Origin: Thermaerobacter marianensis
Lineage (GTDB): Bacteria; Bacillota; Sulfobacillia; DVGY01
Direction of reading: 5' to 3'
DNA length: 64,000 nt
Assembly: GCA_020724425.1 (NCBI GenBank)
Contig: DYGY01000007.1
Span: 1 to 64,000 of the forward strand
The translations under genes and the position numbers were made by a program. How positions within the stretch are numbered: the stretch's first letter is position 1; each line of letters begins with the position of its first letter. A model generated the notes under the pieces. The model ran no database searches. It saw nothing but the letters and a program-made list of their open reading frames with translations, and was not told where the DNA came from. Positions 7,393 through 19,587 of the stretch are shown in pieces.

Positions 7393-9492
7393 GTGTCAGG
7401 AGTAGATATTTTCTTCAATCCCAAATCAGTAGCGGTGATTGGAGCATCAAAAGCAAGAGAAAAAGTTGGCTATGCAGTTATAACCAATATTATCAAATCC
7501 GGATATCAGGGCGAGATCTACCCGATTAACCCCAAGGAATCCGAAATGTTTGGTTACAAGGTATACCCCTCCATTGATGTGGCACCAGAGACAGATCTAG
7601 CGGTTATCGCTGTTCCTGCTCCCTATGTCGCATCTGTAGCTGAAGCATGTGGCAAAAAGGGTGTTAAGGGCCTAGTCGTCATCACTGCCGGCTTTAAGGA
7701 GGTAGGTAAGGAGGGACTAGCTCTAGAGAAGGAATTAATGGAGATTGTTGATAGGTATGGTATGCAAATGATGGGTCCAAACTGTCTTGGTTACATTGAT
7801 ACCCATACACCTATCAATGCTTCCTTTGTGGCCAGGCCACCCATAAAAGGTGACATCGCCTTCTTCTCTCAGAGTGGTGCTGTCTGTGTTGCCGTATTAG
7901 AGTGGTCTCTTAAGAGAAACATTGGCTACAGTAAGTTCATCAGTATGGGTAACAAGGCTCATCTAAACGAGGCAGACTTCATCGAAGAAGCAGCAAAAGA
8001 TCCACACACAAGAGTTATTGCCGGCTACATTGAAAGTGTTGAAGAAGGAGAGAGGTTCCTAGAAATAGCTAGAGAAGCCTCCAAAGAAAAACCAATCGTT
8101 CTAATCAAATCAGGTGTATCCGAGGCTGGTGCAAAAGCTGCTTCCTCCCATACGGGTGCCTTAGCAGGTAGCAATGTTGCCTATGATACCGCTTTCCGTC
8201 AGGCAGGTATCATGAGAGCCAAATCATTGCAAGAACTCTTTGATCTGGCCAGTGCCTTTGCCAAGCAGGATGCTCCTAAAGGCAACAGAGTAGCTATTGT
8301 AACCAATGCAGGTGGTCCCGGTATCATCGCTACTGATAGCGTTGAGCTCAACGACCTAAAAATGGCCTCTTTTGAAAAGGAGACCGTAGATAACCTTAGA
8401 GCAGGTCTTCCTGCAGAAAGTAACGTCTATAACCCTGTAGATGTTATCGGTGATGCAGGTGAAGACAGATTCCGTTATGCCATGGAACATGTCATGAAAG
8501 ACCCTAACGTGGATGCAGTCCTAGTCTTAATGGTAGCTACAGCAATGACCGGACCACATGAGATTGCAGAACTAACCGTAGAAATGCACAAGAAGTATCC
8601 CGATGTTTCAGTTGTTGGAGCTTTCATGGGTGGTGAAACCATTGATGAAGCCTTCAAGCTTATGAGTGATAACAACATTCCAGCATATACTTTCCCAGAA
8701 CAAGCTATTGAAAGTCTAGCTAGGCTAGTAAAGTATAATGAACTGCGTGAACGTCTGCAAAGACAAACTGAAGTAGAGGAATTTGATGTAAACAAAGAAG
8801 CAGTAGCTTCAATTTTCAAAAAGGTCAAAGAGGAAGATCGTGTAGTCCTTCTTGGTAGCGAAGCCATGCAGGTTATTGAGGCCTATGGCATTGGTTCAGC
8901 ACCTGTAGCTCTAGCAAAAACTGCCGAACAGGCCGGTGACCTAGCAGACGCCATGGGGTATCCCGTAGTACTTAAAGTTGCCTCTCCTAAAATTATGCAT
9001 AAAACCGATGTCGGTGGTGTCAAACTGAAACTGCAAACTAGAGAGGAAGTTGAGCAGGGATTCATAGAGATATTGGAGAATGTTCATCGATATCTACCAG
9101 ATGTCCTTGTTGACGGTGTCGAGGTCCAGAAGATGCTACCACAGGGTCGCGAAATGATTATTGGTATGTTTAAAGATGTTCAGTTTGGACCAATGATCAT
9201 GTTTGGGCTTGGTGGAATCTATGTAAACCTCTTGCAGGATGTTTCCTTCCGTCTAGCCAATGGTCTAAACAGGGAAGAGGCCATGGAGATGATCCAGGAA
9301 ACAAAAGCATACACCCTCCTCAAGGGGTACAGAGGAGAAAAACAAGCAGATATTGATGGTGTTGTAGAAACAATCCTGAGAGTTAGCAAACTAGTAACAG
9401 ACTTTCCAGAAATCACAGAATTAGACATTAATCCTCTCTTCGCTTATGAAGAAAGCGTTAATTCAATTGATGTGAAAATTACGATTTCTTGA
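7393..9492 (+). CDS. acdA: Acetate--CoA ligase (ADP-forming), fused alpha and beta subunits
   Basis: A 699-residue NDP-forming acyl-CoA synthetase that conserves the thioester bond of acetyl-CoA (or another acyl-CoA) as ATP. It is common in archaea and fermentative anaerobes. The order is CoA-binding Rossmann domain (SVAVIGASK near the N-terminus), succinyl-CoA-ligase-like domain, phospho-histidine segment SSHTGALAGS (about 252-261) and C-terminal ATP-grasp domain (VVLKVASPKIMHKTDVGGV). GTG start with AGGGTGGTG upstream. It is followed after 13 nt by the DRTGG/BioD-like gene, so the two probably form one operon. The acyl specificity is not readable. Gene symbol tentative. Confidence 0.92.
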   Translation: MSGVDIFFNPKSVAVIGASKAREKVGYAVITNIIKSGYQGEIYPINPKESEMFGYKVYPSIDVAPETDLAVIAVPAPYVASVAEACGKKGVKGLVVITAGFKEVGKEGLALEKELMEIVDRYGMQMMGPNCLGYIDTHTPINASFVARPPIKGDIAFFSQSGAVCVAVLEWSLKRNIGYSKFISMGNKAHLNEADFIEEAAKDPHTRVIAGYIESVEEGERFLEIAREASKEKPIVLIKSGVSEAGAKAASSHTGALAGSNVAYDTAFRQAGIMRAKSLQELFDLASAFAKQDAPKGNRVAIVTNAGGPGIIATDSVELNDLKMASFEKETVDNLRAGLPAESNVYNPVDVIGDAGEDRFRYAMEHVMKDPNVDAVLVLMVATAMTGPHEIAELTVEMHKKYPDVSVVGAFMGGETIDEAFKLMSDNNIPAYTFPEQAIESLARLVKYNELRERLQRQTEVEEFDVNKEAVASIFKKVKEEDRVVLLGSEAMQVIEAYGIGSAPVALAKTAEQAGDLADAMGYPVVLKVASPKIMHKTDVGGVKLKLQTREEVEQGFIEILENVHRYLPDVLVDGVEVQKMLPQGREMIIGMFKDVQFGPMIMFGLGGIYVNLLQDVSFRLANGLNREEAMEMIQETKAYTLLKGYRGEKQADIDGVVETILRVSKLVTDFPEITELDINPLFAYEESVNSIDVKITIS

Positions 9493-9505
9493 GGTGATCT
9501 GACTG

Positions 9506-10561
9506 ATGAAAAACATTTTTATCATTGGTACAGGCGGTAGTGGAAAAACAGCTTTTGGCCTAAGCTTAGGTAAAGCCTTACAAGATGCGGGCAAGAAAGT
9601 AGCATACTTCAAACCCGTTGGCTCCACTTTACGTCAGGACAGTGTTGATCAGGATGTAGTACTCATGAAAGAAACTCTTGGTCTTGAAGCTGACCTTGAA
9701 GATATGGTACCTATTCAGTGTAGTCCATTCTACCTGACCAAGTATCCACACAACAAAGACTATATGCCGATAATTCGTGCAGCCTACGAGAAAGTAGCTA
9801 AAGATGCTGACCATGTAATTATCGAAGGCACAACCTCACCAAGAACAATGTTTGCTCTTGGCCTAGATGCCTTCACCCTAGCAAAAGAGTTCGATGCCGG
9901 AATCATCATGGTAAAAAGAGTAGAACATGATGGTGAATTCGATAGACTCATGCTCTATAACGAATACATCGATCTAAAAGGTTTAAAGAGAATCGGAACT
10001 GTCTTTAACAATATTCCTCATGCTCTTTTAGATAAGACAAAAGGAATATACCAGACAATTCTTGAAGAGCATAACTGCGAAGTCTATGGTGTCATTCCTG
10101 CCAATGTACGTATCTCCTCACCAACCGTGAAAGAGATTAACGAAGTACTAGGAGGAGAACTGCTAGAAGGCGATACAGGCTTAAACAACATCGTAGAGGA
10201 TATCCTCATTGGTGCTATGACCCTTGAAAGCGCTCTTCACTATCTAAGAAGAGCCGCTAACAAAGCCATCGTTACCGGTGGTGACAGAGCTGACCTACTC
10301 ATGGCAGCCATTGAAACCAATGCCTCTGTCCTAATCCTAACTGGTGGACTCTATCCTTCAGTAAATGTATTAGCCAGAGCCCATGAGAAAAAGATACCAG
10401 TAATTCTAGTACACTACGATACCTATACAGCAATCGAAAAGCTTCATGATGTGGCCAGAAAGATTAGCCCAACTGATCTTGAAGGTATCGAAGTAGCTCA
10501 CGATAACTTTAACAAGTTCGTGGAAAAAGACAGACTACTAGAAAAAATCTTTACACTCTAA
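9506..10561 (+). CDS. BioD-like P-loop / DRTGG-domain protein (phosphotransacetylase N-terminal type)
   Basis: A 351-residue protein resembling the N-terminal, non-catalytic half of long phosphotransacetylases. It has a deviant P-loop GTGGSGKT at residues 8-15 in a BioD/CobB-like domain (YFKPVGS follows), a central linker, and a DRTGG-type domain (VTGGDRADLL...LILTGG, about 255-285). The catalytic acetyltransferase domain of Pta is absent. Its position immediately after ADP-forming acetyl-CoA synthetase suggests a regulatory or sensing role in acetyl-CoA/acetate metabolism. This is inference from context. Its last 11 codons form the start of a 69-bp direct repeat that recurs at 11084. Confidence 0.8.
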   Translation: MKNIFIIGTGGSGKTAFGLSLGKALQDAGKKVAYFKPVGSTLRQDSVDQDVVLMKETLGLEADLEDMVPIQCSPFYLTKYPHNKDYMPIIRAAYEKVAKDADHVIIEGTTSPRTMFALGLDAFTLAKEFDAGIIMVKRVEHDGEFDRLMLYNEYIDLKGLKRIGTVFNNIPHALLDKTKGIYQTILEEHNCEVYGVIPANVRISSPTVKEINEVLGGELLEGDTGLNNIVEDILIGAMTLESALHYLRRAANKAIVTGGDRADLLMAAIETNASVLILTGGLYPSVNVLARAHEKKIPVILVHYDTYTAIEKLHDVARKISPTDLEGIEVAHDNFNKFVEKDRLLEKIFTL

Positions 10562-12267: not shown

Positions 12268-12714
12268 TCAATGTAGCACTCTTAACAACATGGCAGCCAT
12301 ACCAGCAGCCACAATCGGACCGGCAGGTATACCCTGGAAAACTAAAATCCCTATTAAAGAACCAATAATTAAGCCTGTGACTACCTCTGGTTGGCTCTGT
12401 AACAGACTGACTCCACCCCCAGCTAGATATGCTGCCAGGATTCCCATGAGAATGGAGATTAAACCTGTCTTGCTACGTATAGTTTCCCAGATTTCAAACC
12501 AGCCAACCTTGCCGGTTGCAAAGGGAACCATAACAGCCAATAGCATCAAACTAATACCAAGAAACAGGCCATTCTTCTCCAAAAAACGAAAGAGAGACTG
12601 ACAGTTCAATACCTGCATCAGTATTAATATGCCTGCAGCCAGAAGTACAGTATTGTTCCCGGCTAGATATCCTAAAGAAGCTATGATAATCATAACCAGT
12701 AAGGCTTCATTCAC
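12268..12714 (-). CDS. DUF441 / UPF0756 family membrane protein
   Basis: A 148-residue protein with four to five membrane helices, showing the layout of the UPF0756 (YtwI/YeaL) family: an N-terminal helix, LAAGILILMQVL, a cytoplasmic segment and GGGVSLLQSQPEVVTGLIIGS. Function unknown in all species. The start region lies within a possible hairpin: CCCTCTCT around 12743 can pair with the GAGAGGG that precedes the ribosome site. Confidence 0.85.
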   Translation of the reverse strand: MNEALLVMIIIASLGYLAGNNTVLLAAGILILMQVLNCQSLFRFLEKNGLFLGISLMLLAVMVPFATGKVGWFEIWETIRSKTGLISILMGILAAYLAGGGVSLLQSQPEVVTGLIIGSLIGILVFQGIPAGPIVAAGMAAMLLRVLH

Positions 12715-12763
12715 AGGATCACCCTCTCTATCTAAAACATATGGAGAGAGGGGAGAACTAATG

Positions 12764-13198
12764 CTAATTCTCTAGGTTTGCTTTGATTCCTAAAAGCATG
12801 CTCTCAGAATTCTTCTTAACCGCCAACTTAGCGACGGGGTCTAGCAGACCTGCAAACATGGGGATCCCTATTTCAAAATCTACCGTTAGGGTTACAGTGG
12901 TTTCTTGACCATCATAGTTGATTTTCCACTCACCTTCAAATTTCTTGACATCGCCTTCGGTTTGCTGATAGCTAATATGAAGGTTTTCATCATCAAAAGT
13001 ATCTTTTTCCTGCCACTTAAGCTTTGTTCCTTTAAGACTAACAACCCATTCCGTTACCGTATAGTTTTCACCACGTTCAACAACCTCAACAGAAATTACA
13101 TTCTCCATAAACTCTGGATATGACTCCATATCCTTGACTTTCTCATAGACTTTCTTGGCAGGTGCTGCAATCTTTTCAGTTACCTCGACATATGGCAT
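12764..13198 (-). CDS. SRPBCC-fold (polyketide cyclase / CoQ10-binding type) protein
   Basis: A 144-residue START/SRPBCC-fold protein beginning MPYVEVTEKIAAPAKKVYE. The pattern KVKDMESYPEFMENV is typical of the RatA/COQ10-like group that binds small hydrophobic ligands. No catalytic residues can be assigned. It is encoded 12 nt downstream of the aminotransferase gene on the same strand, so it is probably co-transcribed. Confidence 0.85.
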   Translation of the reverse strand: MPYVEVTEKIAAPAKKVYEKVKDMESYPEFMENVISVEVVERGENYTVTEWVVSLKGTKLKWQEKDTFDDENLHISYQQTEGDVKKFEGEWKINYDGQETTVTLTVDFEIGIPMFAGLLDPVAKLAVKKNSESMLLGIKANLEN

Positions 13199-13210
13199 TT
13201 ACATACCTCC

Positions 13211-14494
13211 CTAAAGTTGGCTAATAACTTCGGCTACATTAACTGTAGCTTCCTTCATGACCTCAATCACTCTATCTACTTCAGTATCAGTAATTACGGC
13301 AGGAGGCATAACTCTAATGACCTTTGGATTATTAAGTGAATGCAACACCAGAAGATTCCTATCAATGGTTTCTGAGATCATCATACCTCCGGCACCTTCT
13401 GTAGCTAGTTCTAGGCCAATTAGAAGCCCCTTACCCCGGACATCTTTAATAACTTCAGGATATCTTTCTTTCAGATTAGTAAACTCTTTAAGCAAGCGTT
13501 CACCAACTAGTGTAGCTCTTTCTAGAAGATTCTCCTCTAAGATAACCTCTATAGCAGCTACTCCGGCAGCACAACTCAATGGATTACCACCAAAGGTAGA
13601 AGAGTGAATATAGGGGTTCTCATCAAAAATGCTCCAGATCTCAGGCTTTGCCGTAAAGGCACCAATTGGCATCACACCACCACCTAATGACTTGGCCATG
13701 GTGATGATATCAGGCACAACGTTATAGTGTTCTGCAGCAAACATCTTGCCTGTACGACCAATGCCTGTCTGCACTTCATCAAATATTAAAAGAGCACCTT
13801 TTTCATCACAGATTTCTCTAACTGCCTGTAAGTATCCCTCTGGTGGAAGGAGAACCCCACCTTCACCCTGAATCGGTTCAAGGATGACAGCAGCTGTTTC
13901 CTCAGTGACAGCATTCCGCATAGCCTCTATATCCCCAAATGGCACATGGTCAAAATGGGGTAGAAGGGGATAGAAAGGCTTCTTGTATAACTCCCTACCA
14001 CTAGCACTTAAACCCCCAAAAGTCTTCCCATGAAAGGCACCATGAGTTGCTACAAACCTCTCTCTTTTTGTATAGGCACGGGCTAATTTCAAAGCACCTT
14101 CATTAGCTTCAGCACCACTGTTTGCAAAAAAGGAATATTGAAGATTCCCGGGAGTAACTTGAGCTAGAAGCTTACCAAGATCAGCAACCGGCTTATGAGG
14201 AAGAGTTCTGCTAGAAAGGGGAAGGGTATCTAATTGCTTCTTAACGGCCTCAACCACACGGGGGTTTCTATGACCATGAAAAAACAAACCATAGCCCGCA
14301 CAATCAATATATCTTTTTCCATGGATATCAACTAGTGTGGAGCCTTCCGCATACCACTCCAAGGTAGTAAATCCTAGAAAACGATAGAGACGGGCCATAC
14401 CCCCATTCACATATTCACCATAATCACTTAGCGTATCTTCAACAAAACTATCAATGCTTTCTCTGTCTGCAAATAGTTCTTTGGGATCATACAT
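13211..14494 (-). CDS. Class III aminotransferase, putrescine/ornithine type
   Basis: A 427-residue PLP-dependent class III aminotransferase. The closest remembered pattern is E. coli putrescine aminotransferase (YgjG/PatA): FFANSGAEANEGALKLA, GAFHGKTFGGLSASG, HVPFGDIEAMR, LEPIQGEGGV, DEVQTGIGRTG and the PLP lysine in MAKSLGGGVMPIGAF. Such enzymes move the amino group of a diamine or ornithine to 2-oxoglutarate. It lies between an SRPBCC gene and an opine-dehydrogenase-family gene and has its own promoter. Whether the substrate is putrescine, ornithine, lysine or GABA cannot be settled here. Confidence 0.88.
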   Translation of the reverse strand: MYDPKELFADRESIDSFVEDTLSDYGEYVNGGMARLYRFLGFTTLEWYAEGSTLVDIHGKRYIDCAGYGLFFHGHRNPRVVEAVKKQLDTLPLSSRTLPHKPVADLGKLLAQVTPGNLQYSFFANSGAEANEGALKLARAYTKRERFVATHGAFHGKTFGGLSASGRELYKKPFYPLLPHFDHVPFGDIEAMRNAVTEETAAVILEPIQGEGGVLLPPEGYLQAVREICDEKGALLIFDEVQTGIGRTGKMFAAEHYNVVPDIITMAKSLGGGVMPIGAFTAKPEIWSIFDENPYIHSSTFGGNPLSCAAGVAAIEVILEENLLERATLVGERLLKEFTNLKERYPEVIKDVRGKGLLIGLELATEGAGGMMISETIDRNLLVLHSLNNPKVIRVMPPAVITDTEVDRVIEVMKEATVNVAEVISQL

Positions 14495-14574: not shown

Positions 14575-14612
14575 AAAAAAGGAAAGAGAATCGGGGCAAA
14601 ACCCGATCCTCT
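14575..14612 (-). terminator. Terminator after the opine-dehydrogenase-family gene
   Basis: An 11-bp stem (14585-14595 with 14602-14612, one wobble) followed on the minus strand by a T-rich run. It separates the opine gene from the aminotransferase transcript. Confidence 0.8.
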
Positions 14613-14636
14613 TGATAAGCCTTAGCCCACTTACCC

Positions 14637-15839
14637 CTATTTGTAGCTGGCAAGTTTAAACCTTCCATCTGTCACATACTGAATCAAATTTTCGGGTGTA
14701 TATCCTTGTAACCCAAGCTTTTCTAAAGTCCTACCACTCATACCATAGTCAATATCATTGATTGCAGATGCCAGAGCAATCATACTGTTAATTGCAGGGG
14801 TAGCTACCCCTGTTAATTCACCAAGAGCCTTGAGTGGTGTAAGACTCATTGGCACATCCTCAAACACATATCTTGTATCTAGTGTGGTCGGAGCTTTAAG
14901 ACCTTCATAAGCGGTATTGTTCTGAATCGCTGTATAAAGATCACTACCTTCAGCTCCATAAGCTTCAGCTAACCAGTCTTTTGCACTGATAGCTTCAACT
15001 CCTAAGGCCCTAGCAATACTCAACCGTTCCTCATCCATGGCCTCTAAAATCCTTGCTACAGCCGGACTTATACCTTCATGATAGTAGTCAAAGGATTCAC
15101 CAGCTTCAATCCTTGCTGCATTAAGAATAGTTGGTGCGGGATGAAAAATAGCCCCAATATTGTCCAAGCTGGTCTCAAGAACATGAGCTGCTGACTTAAA
15201 CTGGGGGAAAGCATGATTTAACATTCTAACAACTTCATTGGTGCGGTAGGCAGGTAAAGCAGCCACCTTCACTTCATTCTTAATACGGTAAATATGCGCT
15301 ACTCTCTCAGCACTATCATCTTTGGATAGTGCTCTGCTAGCATACACAAGAGATTGAGCTTCAGCTATCACCACATCTTCCCAGTTACCCTGACTTCTTA
15401 AGATATACTCAAACTCCAGTGCTCCTCCGGTACGTCCTGGATTCAACACCACAATCTGATCCTTCTTAAGATAGGGGGCTAGGCGATAAGCTAAAGGTCT
15501 ATGGGCAGTGGCTGGCACAACAATCATAATTACATCTGCATCCAAAACAGCCTCTGCCATATTGTCTGTTGCCAGATCTATTCTGGCAAACCCTTCAACC
15601 TGACCACTAAGCTCAATACCACCAGCAGCAGTTATACGTTCAACCTTTTTCTTGTCGGTGCTCAACAGTCTAACAGGGAAGCCTAGCAAACCAAGATGAG
15701 CTGCCATTGCCAGACCACCATTACCAGCACCAACCACCGCGAATTTAGGGTACGACCGTACCCCCACAGAGACCAAATTACCACCAGACGGTCTCAGGTT
15801 GGCAAGAATCTCTCTTCGCTTATCCCACATAATACTCAC
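14637..15839 (-). CDS. NAD/NADP octopine/nopaline dehydrogenase family protein
   Basis: A 400-residue two-domain dehydrogenase. The N-terminal Rossmann domain has VVGAGNGGLAMAAHL, and the C-terminal part fits the octopine-dehydrogenase helical domain. Opine dehydrogenases join or split an amino acid and a 2-oxo acid through an N-(carboxyalkyl) bond; distant relatives have other substrates. I place the start at GTG 15839, seven bases after GGGAGGT; the longer TTG start at 15845 is too close to that site. The protein keeps an unusual polar N-terminal extension before the Rossmann strand. The gene lies behind a c-di-AMP riboswitch and its terminator, so expression should fall when c-di-AMP is high. 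Confidence 0.82.
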   Translation of the reverse strand: MSIMWDKRREILANLRPSGGNLVSVGVRSYPKFAVVGAGNGGLAMAAHLGLLGFPVRLLSTDKKKVERITAAGGIELSGQVEGFARIDLATDNMAEAVLDADVIMIVVPATAHRPLAYRLAPYLKKDQIVVLNPGRTGGALEFEYILRSQGNWEDVVIAEAQSLVYASRALSKDDSAERVAHIYRIKNEVKVAALPAYRTNEVVRMLNHAFPQFKSAAHVLETSLDNIGAIFHPAPTILNAARIEAGESFDYYHEGISPAVARILEAMDEERLSIARALGVEAISAKDWLAEAYGAEGSDLYTAIQNNTAYEGLKAPTTLDTRYVFEDVPMSLTPLKALGELTGVATPAINSMIALASAINDIDYGMSGRTLEKLGLQGYTPENLIQYVTDGRFKLASYK

Positions 15840-15883
15840 AGCCAAAACCTCCCTTTGAGAAAGTATTGGCGGTGGGGAGGGAC

Positions 15884-15914
15884 AAAAAACACCCTAGGGA
15901 ATACCCTGGGTGTT
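15884..15914 (-). terminator. Riboswitch expression-platform terminator
   Basis: Minus strand: AACACCC-AGGG pairs with CCCT-A-GGGTGTT, followed by TTTTT. It lies between the c-di-AMP aptamer and the opine-dehydrogenase gene. A small hairpin (TTGAGC/GCTCAA, 15913-15928) overlaps its 5' edge and could compete with it. Confidence 0.85.
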
Positions 15915-15949
15915 GAGCATTAGCTCAAGACACAGCCAACTCCCCTTTC

Positions 15950-16075
15950 AACGCTTACGAGGTTAGCTGACGGACTAGGATCGAAAGAGTATAACCCCTC
16001 CCATACTCCACATCGGAAGCATGAGATTCGCCCCTTAGATTGGGTCCCCCGCTCTTCATACGAAGACTAAGCGCT
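15950..16075 (-). ncRNA. c-di-AMP riboswitch (ydaO/yuaA leader)
   Basis: On the minus strand this region contains the most conserved elements of the ydaO/yuaA class: GCGGGGGACCCA followed by GGGGCGAAUC, and near the 3' end GUCAGCUAACCUCGUAAGCG. P1 forms between 16068-16075 and 15950-15957 (AGCGCUUA with UAAGCGUU, 8 pairs). A terminator follows 36 nt downstream, the usual arrangement for an OFF switch in which ligand favours termination. Known members mostly control potassium or osmolyte transport and cell-wall hydrolases; here the downstream gene is an opine-dehydrogenase-family enzyme. Confidence 0.93.
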
Positions 16076-16104
16076 CACGTGGCCTAACCGCTACGGCCAA
16101 TTCA

Positions 16105-16134
16105 ATTGTCTGCAAGACCTGAGATTGTTGTCAA
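16105..16134 (-). promoter_or_regulatory. Promoter of the riboswitch transcript
   Basis: Minus strand: TTGACA (16134-16129), 18-bp spacer, GACAAT (16110-16105), about 30 nt upstream of aptamer stem P1. Confidence 0.5.
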
Positions 16135-16582: not shown

Positions 16583-18133
16583 TTACATTCTTTCAGATAC
16601 CAGTTTTGGCTGGGTAAAGAGGAGGAGATATTCAGGTCCACCTGCTTTAGAATCAGTACCTGACATATTGAAACCACCAAAGGGATGTACTCCAACTAAA
16701 GCACCTGTTGATTTCCTGTTAAAATACAGATTACCCACATGGAATTCGCTTCTAGCCTTTTCTAGCTTCTCACGATTCCTAGAATATACTGAACCAGTTA
16801 AGCCATAAATGCTGTTATTTGCAATCCTAATGGCATCATCATAGTCTTCTGCCTTAAACAAGGCTAGTACTGGACCAAAGATTTCTTCCTGAGCAATCCT
16901 AGAATCCTCAGCAACCCCTTCAACGACAGTAGGTTCAAGGAAATATCCCTTGCTGCCTTCAACCCTTTTTCCACCAACAAGAACAGTACCTTCACTCTTG
17001 GCAGTATCCATATATCCAAGAATGGTGTTCATGGCAGATTCATCAACCACAGGTCCCATATAGTTTTCTAAGTTGTCAGGCTGACCAATCCTAATCTCTT
17101 TAACCTTAGCGATGACTTTCTCTTTGACTTCATCATAGACATCTCTATGGATGATAGCTCTTGAACAGGCAGAACACTTCTGTCCTTGGAATCCAAAAGC
17201 AGAAGTAACAATACCTTCAACAGCTGCATCAATATCAGCCTCATTATCAACAACAATAGCGTCTTTACCACCCATCTCAGCAATAACCCTCTTAATCCAA
17301 ATCTGACCTTCTCTTGGCTTAGCAGCCAACTCATTGATTCTTAGACCAACCTCCATAGAACCGGTAAAGGCAACAAATCTGGTCTTAGGATGTTCAACAA
17401 GGTAATCACCAATAACACCACCACTGCCAGGTAGGAAGTTAATAACCCCTGCAGGTAAGCCTGCTTCTTCCATAATCTCCATGAACTTGGCAGCAATAAC
17501 GGTTGTTGTACTTGCAGGTTTCAAAATGACTGTATTACCAGCAACAACAGCTGCACTAGTCATACCAGCCAAAATCGCCAATGGGAAGTTCCACGGGGGA
17601 ATAACTATACCTACACCAAGAGGAATATAATACTGCTCATTATCTTCTCCGGGAATACGATAGAGGTTAGTAGGTCTATCAAGCTTAAGCATCTCTCTAC
17701 CATAATACTCTAGGAAGTCGATAGCTTCAGCTGTATCGGCATCTGCTTCAATCCATGTCTTACCTGCTTCATAAACCATCCAGGAGTTTAACTCAAAGCG
17801 ACGTCTTTTCATAATGCTTGCAGCCCTAAAAAGGATCCTCGCTCTTGCTTCTGCACTAACATTCTTCCAGCTCTCAAAGGTACTCAAAGCTACCTGCATA
17901 GCTTTTTCAGCTTCTTCCCGACCGGCCTTACCTGTATATCCAACTACTTCATCAGGGTTAGAAGGGTTATAGGATTCAATCTTCTTTTCGGTATAAATAC
18001 GTTCACCACCAATTATGAGTGGATACTCCTTACCAAACTCTGACCGTACTTTCTTTAGTGCTTCTTCCATCCTCTGCCTGTTAACCGGAATACCAAAATC
18101 GGTAATCTGCTCAACACGGTACTCTGTAAGCAT
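16583..18133 (-). CDS. rocA: L-glutamate gamma-semialdehyde (P5C) dehydrogenase
   Basis: A 516-residue NAD-dependent aldehyde dehydrogenase of the RocA/PruA2 type that oxidises glutamate semialdehyde (in equilibrium with P5C) to glutamate. Visible motifs are PPWNFPLAI, the catalytic glutamate in [12 protein letters not shown], the nucleophile cysteine in [25 protein letters not shown] and the C-terminal [12 protein letters not shown]. Start placed at ATG 18133, seven bases after AGGAGGT; the longer frame from 18229 has no such site. A 19-bp dyad (18157-18175) just upstream is a good operator candidate. Context with an aminotransferase suggests amino-acid or diamine breakdown to glutamate. Confidence 0.95.
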
Positions 18134-18156
18134 ATTGATACCTCCTGTAATTATTT

Positions 18157-18175
18157 TGTGGCAACAGTTACCACA
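18157..18175. promoter_or_regulatory. 19-bp dyad, candidate operator for rocA
   Basis: TGTGG-C-AAC-A-GTT-A-CCACA is symmetric except for one base pair. It is centred about 33 nt before the rocA start codon. A TATAAT-like hexamer lies upstream at 18241-18236 on the minus strand, so the dyad would be downstream of the transcription start. The cognate regulator is unknown. Confidence 0.5.
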
Positions 18176-18265
18176 CTTTTCCCAGAATACTATTTCAGGA
18201 CAAAATGCAAAACTCCTGTCTACCTCCACAAATATATTATAGCTTACAGGTACCCTTAAATATCC

Positions 18266-18731
18266 TCATTTAATCACACCACAAGCTAATCTTCTACCCG
18301 AATCACCTCCAGGCTGAGTCCTATAGTCATCTGGATTTTCATGAATAATGATTGAGCGACCAACCACATCTCTAACCGCAAATCTATTTGTAAAGACACA
18401 CATTCTCGCTTTGCCATTGTTGGAAAAGAGAACAGGTAGATCACCCGCATGATTCCCATGGGGTTGATTATCCGGATTCCAATGCCCACCTGCAGCTAAA
18501 AAGGGATCCTCAGGATTTCCAACCGTGCAATCTCCAAACTCATGAATATGGAAACCATGAGGCCCAATGGGGGGGGTCCCCAGGTACATAATCTGGTAAA
18601 CCAGAAACCTCTACAGAAATCCAGGTACCCCCATAAACTTCTCGAAAACGAACCACCCCAGTAATATCAGGAGCCAAAGGACCTCCTTTAATCCTAGCCA
18701 TTGCCGTAGTCCTATTAGCAAACATCTTCAT
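18266..18731 (-). pseudogene. sodC: Cu/Zn superoxide dismutase family gene with a one-base frameshift
   Basis: Two overlapping frames together encode one Cu/Zn-SOD-family protein. The first begins MKMFANRTTAMARIKGG (ATG 18731 after GAAAGGGG) and reads through VEVSGLPDYVPG. The second continues PPIGPHGFHIHEFGDCT, then GGHWNPDNQPHGNHAGD, and ends GGDSGRRLACGVIK. The metal-ligand histidines and aspartate are in the second frame. The break is at a run of eight C (18569-18576, plus-strand G); removing one base restores an open frame of about 154 residues. There is no signal peptide. It could be a real null allele, a phase-variable tract or a sequencing error. Confidence 0.85.
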
Positions 18732-18843
18732 ACCCCTTTCTAGAGTATAGATATGTTTTTCTCCTGCTAATGGTCCCCTGATAGGAAGAAGGTAATTTGT
18801 GTAGAAGTATCTAGTTGATGGATATTGAAAGGAGCTAAAATCT

Positions 18844-19587
18844 TTGGCACACTTCAATTCTGTAACAGAATATACCCAATTAAATGATGATTTTCCGACT
18901 GCTGTTTTTGAACAGCTTCTCAAAAAGTCCTTTCTGAAACACACTCACACCGGTATAGATCTAAGCAGTGGAATAGGAATGGCCAGTCGCTTCCTAGCTG
19001 CTAAAGGAGTAGCCATTATGGGTATTGAACCCTCAAGTACACTTAGAGCCCAAGCCCGAAAACTTGATGCTATGGCAGGTCTGAGAATCAGGTATTTAGC
19101 CACTAGTCCAGAAGACACAACCCTCAAAAATGCAAATCTTGATTTTGCCCTAGCAGCTAAAAGTTATCACTCTTTTAACAGATCTCTAGTTATCCCGGAA
19201 GTAAAGAGGATTCTCAAACCTTATGGACACTTCATCGTCATAGACTCAGACCTCATTAAAAGCTCTCTAGTTACTGCCACACTTGAACTAATCAGACAGT
19301 ATAGCCCCCATATAAAACTTGCAGACAGTGACGCCAATGAAAGCCTTTATGGTTTTCCCACCGAATGGTTTGGCGAATGGAACACACATAATCTATATAT
19401 GGCAGATCACTGGCAATGCAAATATACCGTTAGTTTCTCCCATCAAGGCTGGCGGGAAAAGATCAAAACCCTCTTTAACCATGAAGAAGTAGATAGGGAC
19501 CTAGCAAAGATTCTTAAACAATCCTATCCCCAACAACCCCTAATAGTGCCATATGTCTGTTCCATTGTTGTCCTTCAAAATATATAA
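18844..19587 (+). CDS. Class I SAM-dependent methyltransferase
   Basis: A 247-residue class I methyltransferase. Motif I is GIDLSSGIGMASRFLAAKG and an acidic residue follows in MGIEPSS; the fold continues with LDFALAAKSYHSF and a post-motif ILKPYGHFIVID. Start taken as TTG 18844, ten bases after GGAG; no ATG or GTG fits the ribosome site. The acceptor substrate is unknown. It is the first gene of a plus-strand run with a glycosyltransferase and a second methyltransferase and is divergent from sodC. Confidence 0.82.
   Translation: MAHFNSVTEYTQLNDDFPTAVFEQLLKKSFLKHTHTGIDLSSGIGMASRFLAAKGVAIMGIEPSSTLRAQARKLDAMAGLRIRYLATSPEDTTLKNANLDFALAAKSYHSFNRSLVIPEVKRILKPYGHFIVIDSDLIKSSLVTATLELIRQYSPHIKLADSDANESLYGFPTEWFGEWNTHNLYMADHWQCKYTVSFSHQGWREKIKTLFNHEEVDRDLAKILKQSYPQQPLIVPYVCSIVVLQNI

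What the first reader, a model, noticed from the sequence alone, without database searches (positions are those of the whole stretch)
15839..16134. c-di-AMP riboswitch controlling an opine-dehydrogenase-family gene
The aptamer carries the class-defining segments (GGGGGACCC, GGGGCGAAUC, GUCAGCUAACCUCGUAAGCG) and is followed by a terminator and then the coding region. The usual targets I know are K+ and osmolyte transporters and wall hydrolases. A metabolic dehydrogenase as sole target would suggest that its product or substrate is an osmolyte, or that this enzyme class is part of turgor control. The neighbouring aminotransferase and P5C dehydrogenase could supply or remove amino-acid precursors.
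Basis: partly seen in the sequence, partly recalled or inferred. Interest (0 to 1): 0.75.

Follow-up and report, generated by a model that had tools for sequence, protein, structure and literature searches.

The report
c-di-AMP riboswitch on opine dehydrogenase
A true c-di-AMP riboswitch, the only one found in this genome, sits in front of an opine dehydrogenase gene; the same pairing recurs in 77 other bacterial genomes, usually with a vitamin-B12 mutase next door, which points to an uncharacterised pathway, perhaps for a salt-protecting compound, switched by this second messenger.

Summary
Rfam's c-di-AMP model hits window 16083-15937 (minus strand) at 79.6 bits (gathering score 38), followed by an intrinsic terminator (15914-15884) and the opine dehydrogenase gene (GTG 15839 to 14637). 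It is the only c-di-AMP riboswitch found in the 2.08-Mb, 92%-complete assembly.

The pairing is not a local oddity. In scans of the window's class and a phylum sample, 83 riboswitches lie just upstream of an opine dehydrogenase or its operon, in 78 genomes of 32 families, often as the genome's sole c-di-AMP riboswitch. The window's gene falls in a 20-member group, all 20 riboswitch-linked.

Around it is a module no paper found here describes: riboswitch > [ATP-grasp ligase] > opine dehydrogenase > B12-dependent glutamate-mutase-like enzyme > [asparagine-synthetase-like amidotransferase or ligase]. The mutase is present in 76 of the 83. The ligase, and in one locus the amidotransferase, also occur behind their own riboswitch.

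Best explanation: an OFF switch on an opine-type biosynthetic pathway whose product is probably an osmolyte or K+ counter-ion. Switch and association are strong; the product is inference. Published target lists (Block 2010; Nelson 2013) could not be read, so priority is unverified.

The parts
16105..16134 (-). Candidate promoter TTGACA-18-GACAAT (a second candidate is 16176-16147, TTGACA-18-TACCAT with TG)
   Evidence: Consensus scan; the region's site count is not above shuffles, so weak evidence
15937..16083 (-). c-di-AMP riboswitch aptamer (RF00379, ydaO/yuaA)
   Evidence: Rfam cmscan 79.6 bits, gathering score 38; own model R1 101 bits; only one position (15977 T for G, otherwise 44 of 45) departs uniquely from relatives
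15910..15933 (-). Candidate antiterminator hairpin GUGU..UUGAGC/GCUCAA..CAC that would hide the 5' arm of the terminator
   Evidence: Thermodynamic fold with the 3' arm withheld; not conserved as a mechanism in relatives
15884..15914 (-). Intrinsic terminator: AACACCCAGGG-UAUU-CCCUAGGGUGUU with T6 tract
   Evidence: Fold -16.6 kcal/mol; terminators follow 47 of 83 related riboswitches against 3 of 83 shuffled
15848..15854 (-). Shine-Dalgarno-like AGGGAGG, 8 nt before GTG
   Evidence: Read from the sequence
14637..15839 (-). Opine dehydrogenase (CENDH/octopine dehydrogenase family), start GTG 15839 (longer TTG ORF from 15845)
   Evidence: PF02317 170 bits; 1bg6 279.6 bits over residues 34-385; His235, Arg325, Asp330 conserved in 166, 163 and 163 of 166 relatives
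14584..14613 (-). Terminator-like hairpin after the opine dehydrogenase gene, separating it from the aminotransferase
   Evidence: 12 pairs, 6 GC, T-rich tail
13211..14494 (-). Class-III aminotransferase; neighbour, probably not part of the unit
   Evidence: PF00202 370 bits; below the putrescine-aminotransferase cut-offs; no homologue in the other opine-dehydrogenase loci
16583..18229 (-). L-glutamate gamma-semialdehyde (P5C) dehydrogenase; upstream neighbour, not part of the unit
   Evidence: TIGR01237 752 bits, over cut-off; no homologue in the other loci

Best explanation
A c-di-AMP OFF riboswitch controls an opine dehydrogenase that belongs to an uncharacterised biosynthetic module. When c-di-AMP is high (K+ and turgor sufficient) the aptamer is locked and the terminator at 15914-15884 stops transcription; when c-di-AMP falls the RNA reads through and the enzyme is made. 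The enzyme reductively joins an amino acid to a 2-oxo acid. In most relatives the same transcript carries a B12-dependent glutamate-mutase-like enzyme, and often an ATP-grasp ligase or an asparagine-synthetase-like amidotransferase, so the product is probably an opine-type, sometimes amidated or peptide-linked, solute or K+ counter-ion made under osmotic need. In the window's genome the riboswitch-controlled gene stands alone; the only full-length copy of the mutase lies on another contig next to a second, unswitched opine dehydrogenase. Shown: riboswitch, terminator, enzyme family, recurrence, module. Inferred: polarity, substrates, product, osmotic role.
For: Rfam hit 79.6 bits; terminator, with terminators after 47 of 83 related riboswitches against 3 of 83 shuffled. 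83 riboswitches upstream of opine-dehydrogenase units; 20 of 20 in the window's group, SH-aLRT 87. Catalytic His/Arg/Asp conserved. Mutase: fold closest to glutamate mutase 1cb7 (E 6.6e-19), B12 His and Gly invariant in 61 of 61, MutL next to it in L198 (PF13941, 560 bits). ATP-grasp gene behind its own riboswitch in L030 while its genome (G057) has riboswitch > ODH > mutase elsewhere (L081); amidotransferase and ODH-mutase each with its own riboswitch side by side in L206. Other riboswitch targets of the same class include an NlpC/P60 protein, an ABC ATPase with CBS domain and an amino-acid/K+ permease. Own genome has a CdaA-type diadenylate cyclase. Published precedent for c-di-AMP (with Na+) control of an osmolyte-biosynthesis gene: lysine-2,3-aminomutase in Dehalobacter (PMC9337991).
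Against: No substrate or product is known; opines are not established bacterial compatible solutes in any paper found. Direct pairing between the conserved aptamer strand and the terminator arms is not above chance in relatives, and the switching strand proposed for the window is only weakly favoured (z -1.9). The window's gene lacks the mutase next door. Many opine dehydrogenase-mutase pairs lack the riboswitch and lie beside lysine/DAP genes, so the chemistry is not solely a c-di-AMP matter.
Confidence: 0.5

Rival explanations
1. The module makes a cell-wall building block rather than a solute: the D-Ala-D-Ala-ligase-like enzyme makes an unusual dipeptide and the asparagine-synthetase-like enzyme amidates a wall precursor; c-di-AMP controls it as it controls wall hydrolases.
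For: ATP-grasp enzyme is of the Dala_Dala_lig_C family (PF07478); c-di-AMP riboswitches control wall hydrolases, also in this class and in Streptomyces (PMC10117811); unswitched copies lie beside DapF and an aminotransferase.
Against: The ligase scores below every Ddl cut-off and is absent from most switched loci, including the window's; no wall transporter or murein gene recurs in the operon.
Confidence: 0.17
2. The dehydrogenase is catabolic or redox-balancing (NADH reoxidation, or degradation of an opine or secondary amine), with c-di-AMP acting as a general growth or energy signal.
For: Invertebrate octopine dehydrogenases serve NAD regeneration (established knowledge); the relative octopine dehydrogenase 3c7a matches at 56.6 bits; solo, mutase-free riboswitch-ODH loci exist (7 of 83).
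Against: In most loci the gene is tied to a mutase and often to ATP-using amide-forming enzymes, a biosynthetic pattern; no opine or amino-acid uptake gene recurs in the units.
Confidence: 0.18
3. The riboswitch works with another polarity or level (ON switch or translational control), so the pathway is induced rather than repressed by c-di-AMP.
For: No conserved antiterminator pairing could be shown; 36 of 83 related riboswitches have no terminator by this scan.
Against: The window has a clear terminator right after the aptamer, and the tested members described in papers read here terminate on ligand binding (Dehalobacter, PMC9337991; rpfA, PMC10117811).
Confidence: 0.1
4. Chance or passive neighbourhood: the riboswitch lies there without controlling the gene.
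For: None beyond the solo arrangement in the window.
Against: 83 same-strand pairings in 32 families, among proteins mostly 45-57% identical to the window's; the label is far more clustered on the tree than shuffles, yet needs at least 7 changes; a rough estimate from about 3 riboswitches per genome gives about 0.001 expected per gene.
Confidence: 0.02

Closest known systems
c-di-AMP (ydaO/yuaA) riboswitch, RF00379
   Same: Full-length covariance-model match, conserved segments, terminator expression platform
   Different: Target is an opine dehydrogenase module, not the K+/amino-acid transporters and wall enzymes named in the sources read
Na+/c-di-AMP tandem riboswitch on lysine-2,3-aminomutase, Dehalobacter sp. 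CF (PMC9337991)
   Same: c-di-AMP OFF control of a biosynthetic enzyme for an amino-acid-derived osmolyte
   Different: Different enzyme chemistry, and no Na+ aptamer hit in the window
N-(1-D-carboxyethyl)-L-norvaline dehydrogenase (CENDH, Arthrobacter, PDB 1bg6) and octopine dehydrogenase (3c7a)
   Same: Whole-length homology and catalytic His/Arg/Asp
   Different: Substrates unknown; riboswitch-controlled; usually paired with a B12 mutase
Glutamate (methylaspartate) mutase MutS/MutE with MutL
   Same: Partner enzyme's fold (1cb7, E 6.6e-19), B12-binding His, MutL in one locus
   Different: Single fused chain with the B12 domain first, about 17% identity in the structural match; weak Pfam MutE score
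N-acetylglutaminylglutamine amide (NAGGN) osmolyte system
   Same: Combines an asparagine-synthetase-like amidotransferase with an ATP-grasp-type ligase (family knowledge)
   Different: The amidotransferase scores 274 against a cut-off of 570 for TIGR03104 and fits asparagine synthase B better; it is not that system

Membership tests
c-di-AMP riboswitch (RF00379) | Covariance-model score over the gathering threshold | tested here: met
   79.6 vs 38 bits
c-di-AMP riboswitch (RF00379) | Conserved paired core with covariation in relatives | tested here: met
   17 of 30 pairs have two-sided changes that keep the pair in 25 relatives
c-di-AMP riboswitch (RF00379) | Downstream expression platform | tested here: met
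   Terminator 15914-15884
c-di-AMP riboswitch (RF00379) | Aptamer strand and terminator mutually exclusive | tested here: inconclusive
   Window-specific alternative fold exists but complementarity in relatives is not above shuffles
c-di-AMP riboswitch (RF00379) | Binds c-di-AMP | not testable with these tools
   Needs in-line probing
Opine dehydrogenase (PF02317, CENDH type) | Octopine_DH helical domain plus Rossmann domain | tested here: met
   170.3 bits, cut-off 30; NAD-binding domain residues 34-133
Opine dehydrogenase (PF02317, CENDH type) | Catalytic His, Arg, Asp | tested here: met
   H235 166/166, R325 163/166, D330 163/166; identification with the octopine dehydrogenase triad rests on family knowledge and the alignment
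Opine dehydrogenase (PF02317, CENDH type) | Reductive coupling of amino acid and 2-oxo acid | not testable with these tools
   Needs enzyme assay
Glutamate mutase (partner enzyme in relatives) | Fold | tested here: met
   Top Foldseek hits 1cb7 and 6h9e; model pLDDT 90
Glutamate mutase (partner enzyme in relatives) | Family profile MutE over cut-off | tested here: inconclusive
   33.8 bits for the own-genome copy (cut-off 26.6), 16.8 and 20.9 for two others
NAGGN osmolyte system | TIGR03104 amidotransferase | tested here: not met
   274 vs cut-off 570

The most novel reading that the evidence does not exclude
Across many Bacillota-type lineages, c-di-AMP riboswitches control an undescribed pathway in which an opine dehydrogenase, a B12-dependent glutamate-mutase-like enzyme and an amide- or peptide-forming enzyme make a new class of compatible solute or K+ counter-ion; in some genomes this is the only riboswitch-borne output of c-di-AMP.
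Probability: 0.4. Interest if true: 0.82.

Novelty: new variant of a known kind. Interest (0 to 1): 0.62.

Why it matters
c-di-AMP is essential in many bacteria, and the targets of its riboswitch usually reveal how cells handle K+ and turgor. A conserved biosynthetic module as target, sole target in several genomes, would point to an unrecognised osmolyte or counter-ion and give a genetic handle on it: the riboswitch marks the genes, and a handful of enzymes can be assayed together.

Tried and rejected
(1) Neighbouring aminotransferase and P5C dehydrogenase as part of the unit: rejected, no homologue in any other locus and a terminator-like hairpin between. (2) A universal antiterminator in which the conserved aptamer strand pairs with the terminator: not supported, observed complementarity equals shuffled; the downstream-strand variant is not enriched either (mean z 0.05). 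(3) First riboswitch alignment A1 mixed strands and was discarded, replaced by A2. (4) NAGGN-type osmolyte system: defining profile not met. (5) Presence of the ATP-grasp partner in the window's genome: only a 32% Ddl-like hit. (6) An asparagine synthetase-like gene exists elsewhere in the window's genome (39%) but no link was shown. (7) The published target lists (Block 2010, Nelson 2013) are not held; text searches for riboswitch with opine/octopine dehydrogenase found nothing relevant.

Full report
CHECK OF THE OBSERVATION. Rfam's RF00379 covers 16083-15937 with the full model at 79.6 bits (gathering score 38). The sequence then runs into a hairpin with a T6 tract, 15914-15884, a Shine-Dalgarno-like AGGGAGG and a GTG start at 15839. 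The whole genome (2.08 Mb, 45 contigs, 92% complete) has no second match, so 'sole target' is correct as far as the assembly goes. The genome has one diadenylate cyclase, in a CdaA-YbbR arrangement, so the ligand can be made.

THE TARGET. The protein is an opine dehydrogenase of the Arthrobacter CENDH type: PF02317 at 170 bits and 1bg6 at 279.6 bits over nearly its whole length. Residues His235, Arg325 and Asp330 are conserved in 166, 163 and 163 of 166 homologues; by alignment with octopine dehydrogenase these correspond, from family knowledge, to its catalytic triad. The gene is followed by a terminator-like hairpin at 14613-14584, so the aminotransferase is probably separate.

RECURRENCE. 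I searched the window's class (154 genomes) and an even sample of its phylum (399 genomes), fetched the opine dehydrogenase loci, built a covariance model from 25 riboswitches of the class (several of these already lie at opine dehydrogenase units, so it is not independent of them, but the Rfam model finds the class members on its own) and scanned all loci. After removing duplicate records, 83 riboswitches lie on the same strand just upstream of an opine dehydrogenase gene or its operon. They fall in 78 genomes and 32 family codes, counted by hand from the handles. More distant paralogues of about 31-40% identity mostly lack it. In at least 13 class genomes the single riboswitch found is the one at this gene. 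In a tree of 166 proteins the window's gene is inside a 20-member group (SH-aLRT 87) in which all 20 are riboswitch-linked; over the whole tree the label needs 17 changes, at least 7 forced by well-supported branches, against about 55 in shuffles. One named record is a Bacillota MAG, Yes71-24 (L002).

THE MODULE. Counting gene order behind the 83 riboswitches: RS-ODH-mutase 36; RS-ligase-ODH-mutase 18; RS-ODH-mutase-amidotransferase 12; RS-ODH alone 7 (including the window and one at a contig end); RS-ODH-mutase-ligase 5; RS-amidotransferase-ODH-mutase 2; three rarer orders. No other protein recurs to this degree. The mutase is a single chain of about 550 residues with an N-terminal B12-binding domain whose His14 and Gly17 are invariant in 61 of 61. 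Its AlphaFold model (pLDDT 90) is closest to glutamate mutase 1cb7 (E 6.6e-19); of the three copies scanned, only the own-genome one is above the Pfam MutE cut-off. In L198 it is preceded by MutL (PF13941, 560 bits), the protein family that accompanies glutamate mutase. The ligase is D-Ala-D-Ala-ligase-like but below all Ddl cut-offs. The amidotransferase fits asparagine synthase B (555 bits against 499).

TWO INDEPENDENT LINKS. In genome G057 the riboswitch-ODH-mutase unit (L081) and a riboswitch-ligase unit (L030) lie on separate contigs. In L206 an amidotransferase with its own riboswitch stands next to a riboswitch-ODH-mutase unit. Enzymes repeatedly placed under the same signal are likely to act in one pathway. 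The ODH-mutase pair also exists without the riboswitch in records titled Chloroflexi and Halanaerobiales, and as a second copy in the window's own genome on contig 21 next to P-type ATPase, DapF and an aminotransferase. That contig holds the only full-length mutase of the genome; a MutL gene lies on contig 7.

HOW IT PROBABLY WORKS. Shown: aptamer, terminator, enzyme family, recurrence, module. Inferred: OFF polarity, by analogy with members tested in papers and from the terminator. In the window a fold exists in which the aptamer strand CAGCUAACCUC pairs with GGGGAGUUGGCUG and a hairpin at 15933-15910 hides the terminator's 5' arm, but tests across relatives gave no enrichment of such pairing, so the detailed switching path is a hypothesis. 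High c-di-AMP signals absence of osmotic distress (PMC9337991 as read), so the pathway would be made under osmotic or K+ need. An opine dehydrogenase plus a glutamate-mutase-like enzyme plus amide-forming enzymes suggests a small polar amino-acid derivative. [quoted passage not shown] Product, substrates and role are unproven.

NOVELTY. The RNA is an ordinary member of a known class. The target module is what is new, as far as I could search: no paper held combines a riboswitch with opine or octopine dehydrogenase in a relevant way, or glutamate mutase with opine dehydrogenase. The primary target lists of 2010 and 2013 could not be opened, so the gene association itself may already be listed there.

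Noticed in passing
window 18266-18944 (-): A Cu/Zn superoxide dismutase appears split over two overlapping ORFs (18540-18944 and 18266-18589), as by a frameshift; only the second was scanned, and it carries the PF00080 match from profile position 25 on.
   Followed up: no
L193:6148-6538: Two complete c-di-AMP aptamers in tandem in front of the same opine dehydrogenase-mutase operon.
   Followed up: partly
L206:5028-8806: Amidotransferase and opine dehydrogenase-mutase units side by side, each with its own c-di-AMP riboswitch.
   Followed up: partly
L110:4902-14267 (own genome, contig 21): Second, unswitched opine dehydrogenase with the genome's only full-length mutase, beside a cation P-type ATPase, DapF and an aminotransferase; the same layout recurs in several other unswitched loci.
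   Followed up: partly
window 15977: The aptamer has T where 44 of 45 relatives have G; effect on binding unknown.
   Followed up: no
window 12268-13198 (-): A polyketide-cyclase/RatA-like START-domain protein and a DUF441 membrane protein lie downstream of the aminotransferase.
   Followed up: no
window 7393-10561 (+): Acetate-CoA ligase (ADP-forming)-like protein followed by a phosphotransacetylase N-domain/DRTGG-like protein, a likely energy-conserving pair.
   Followed up: no
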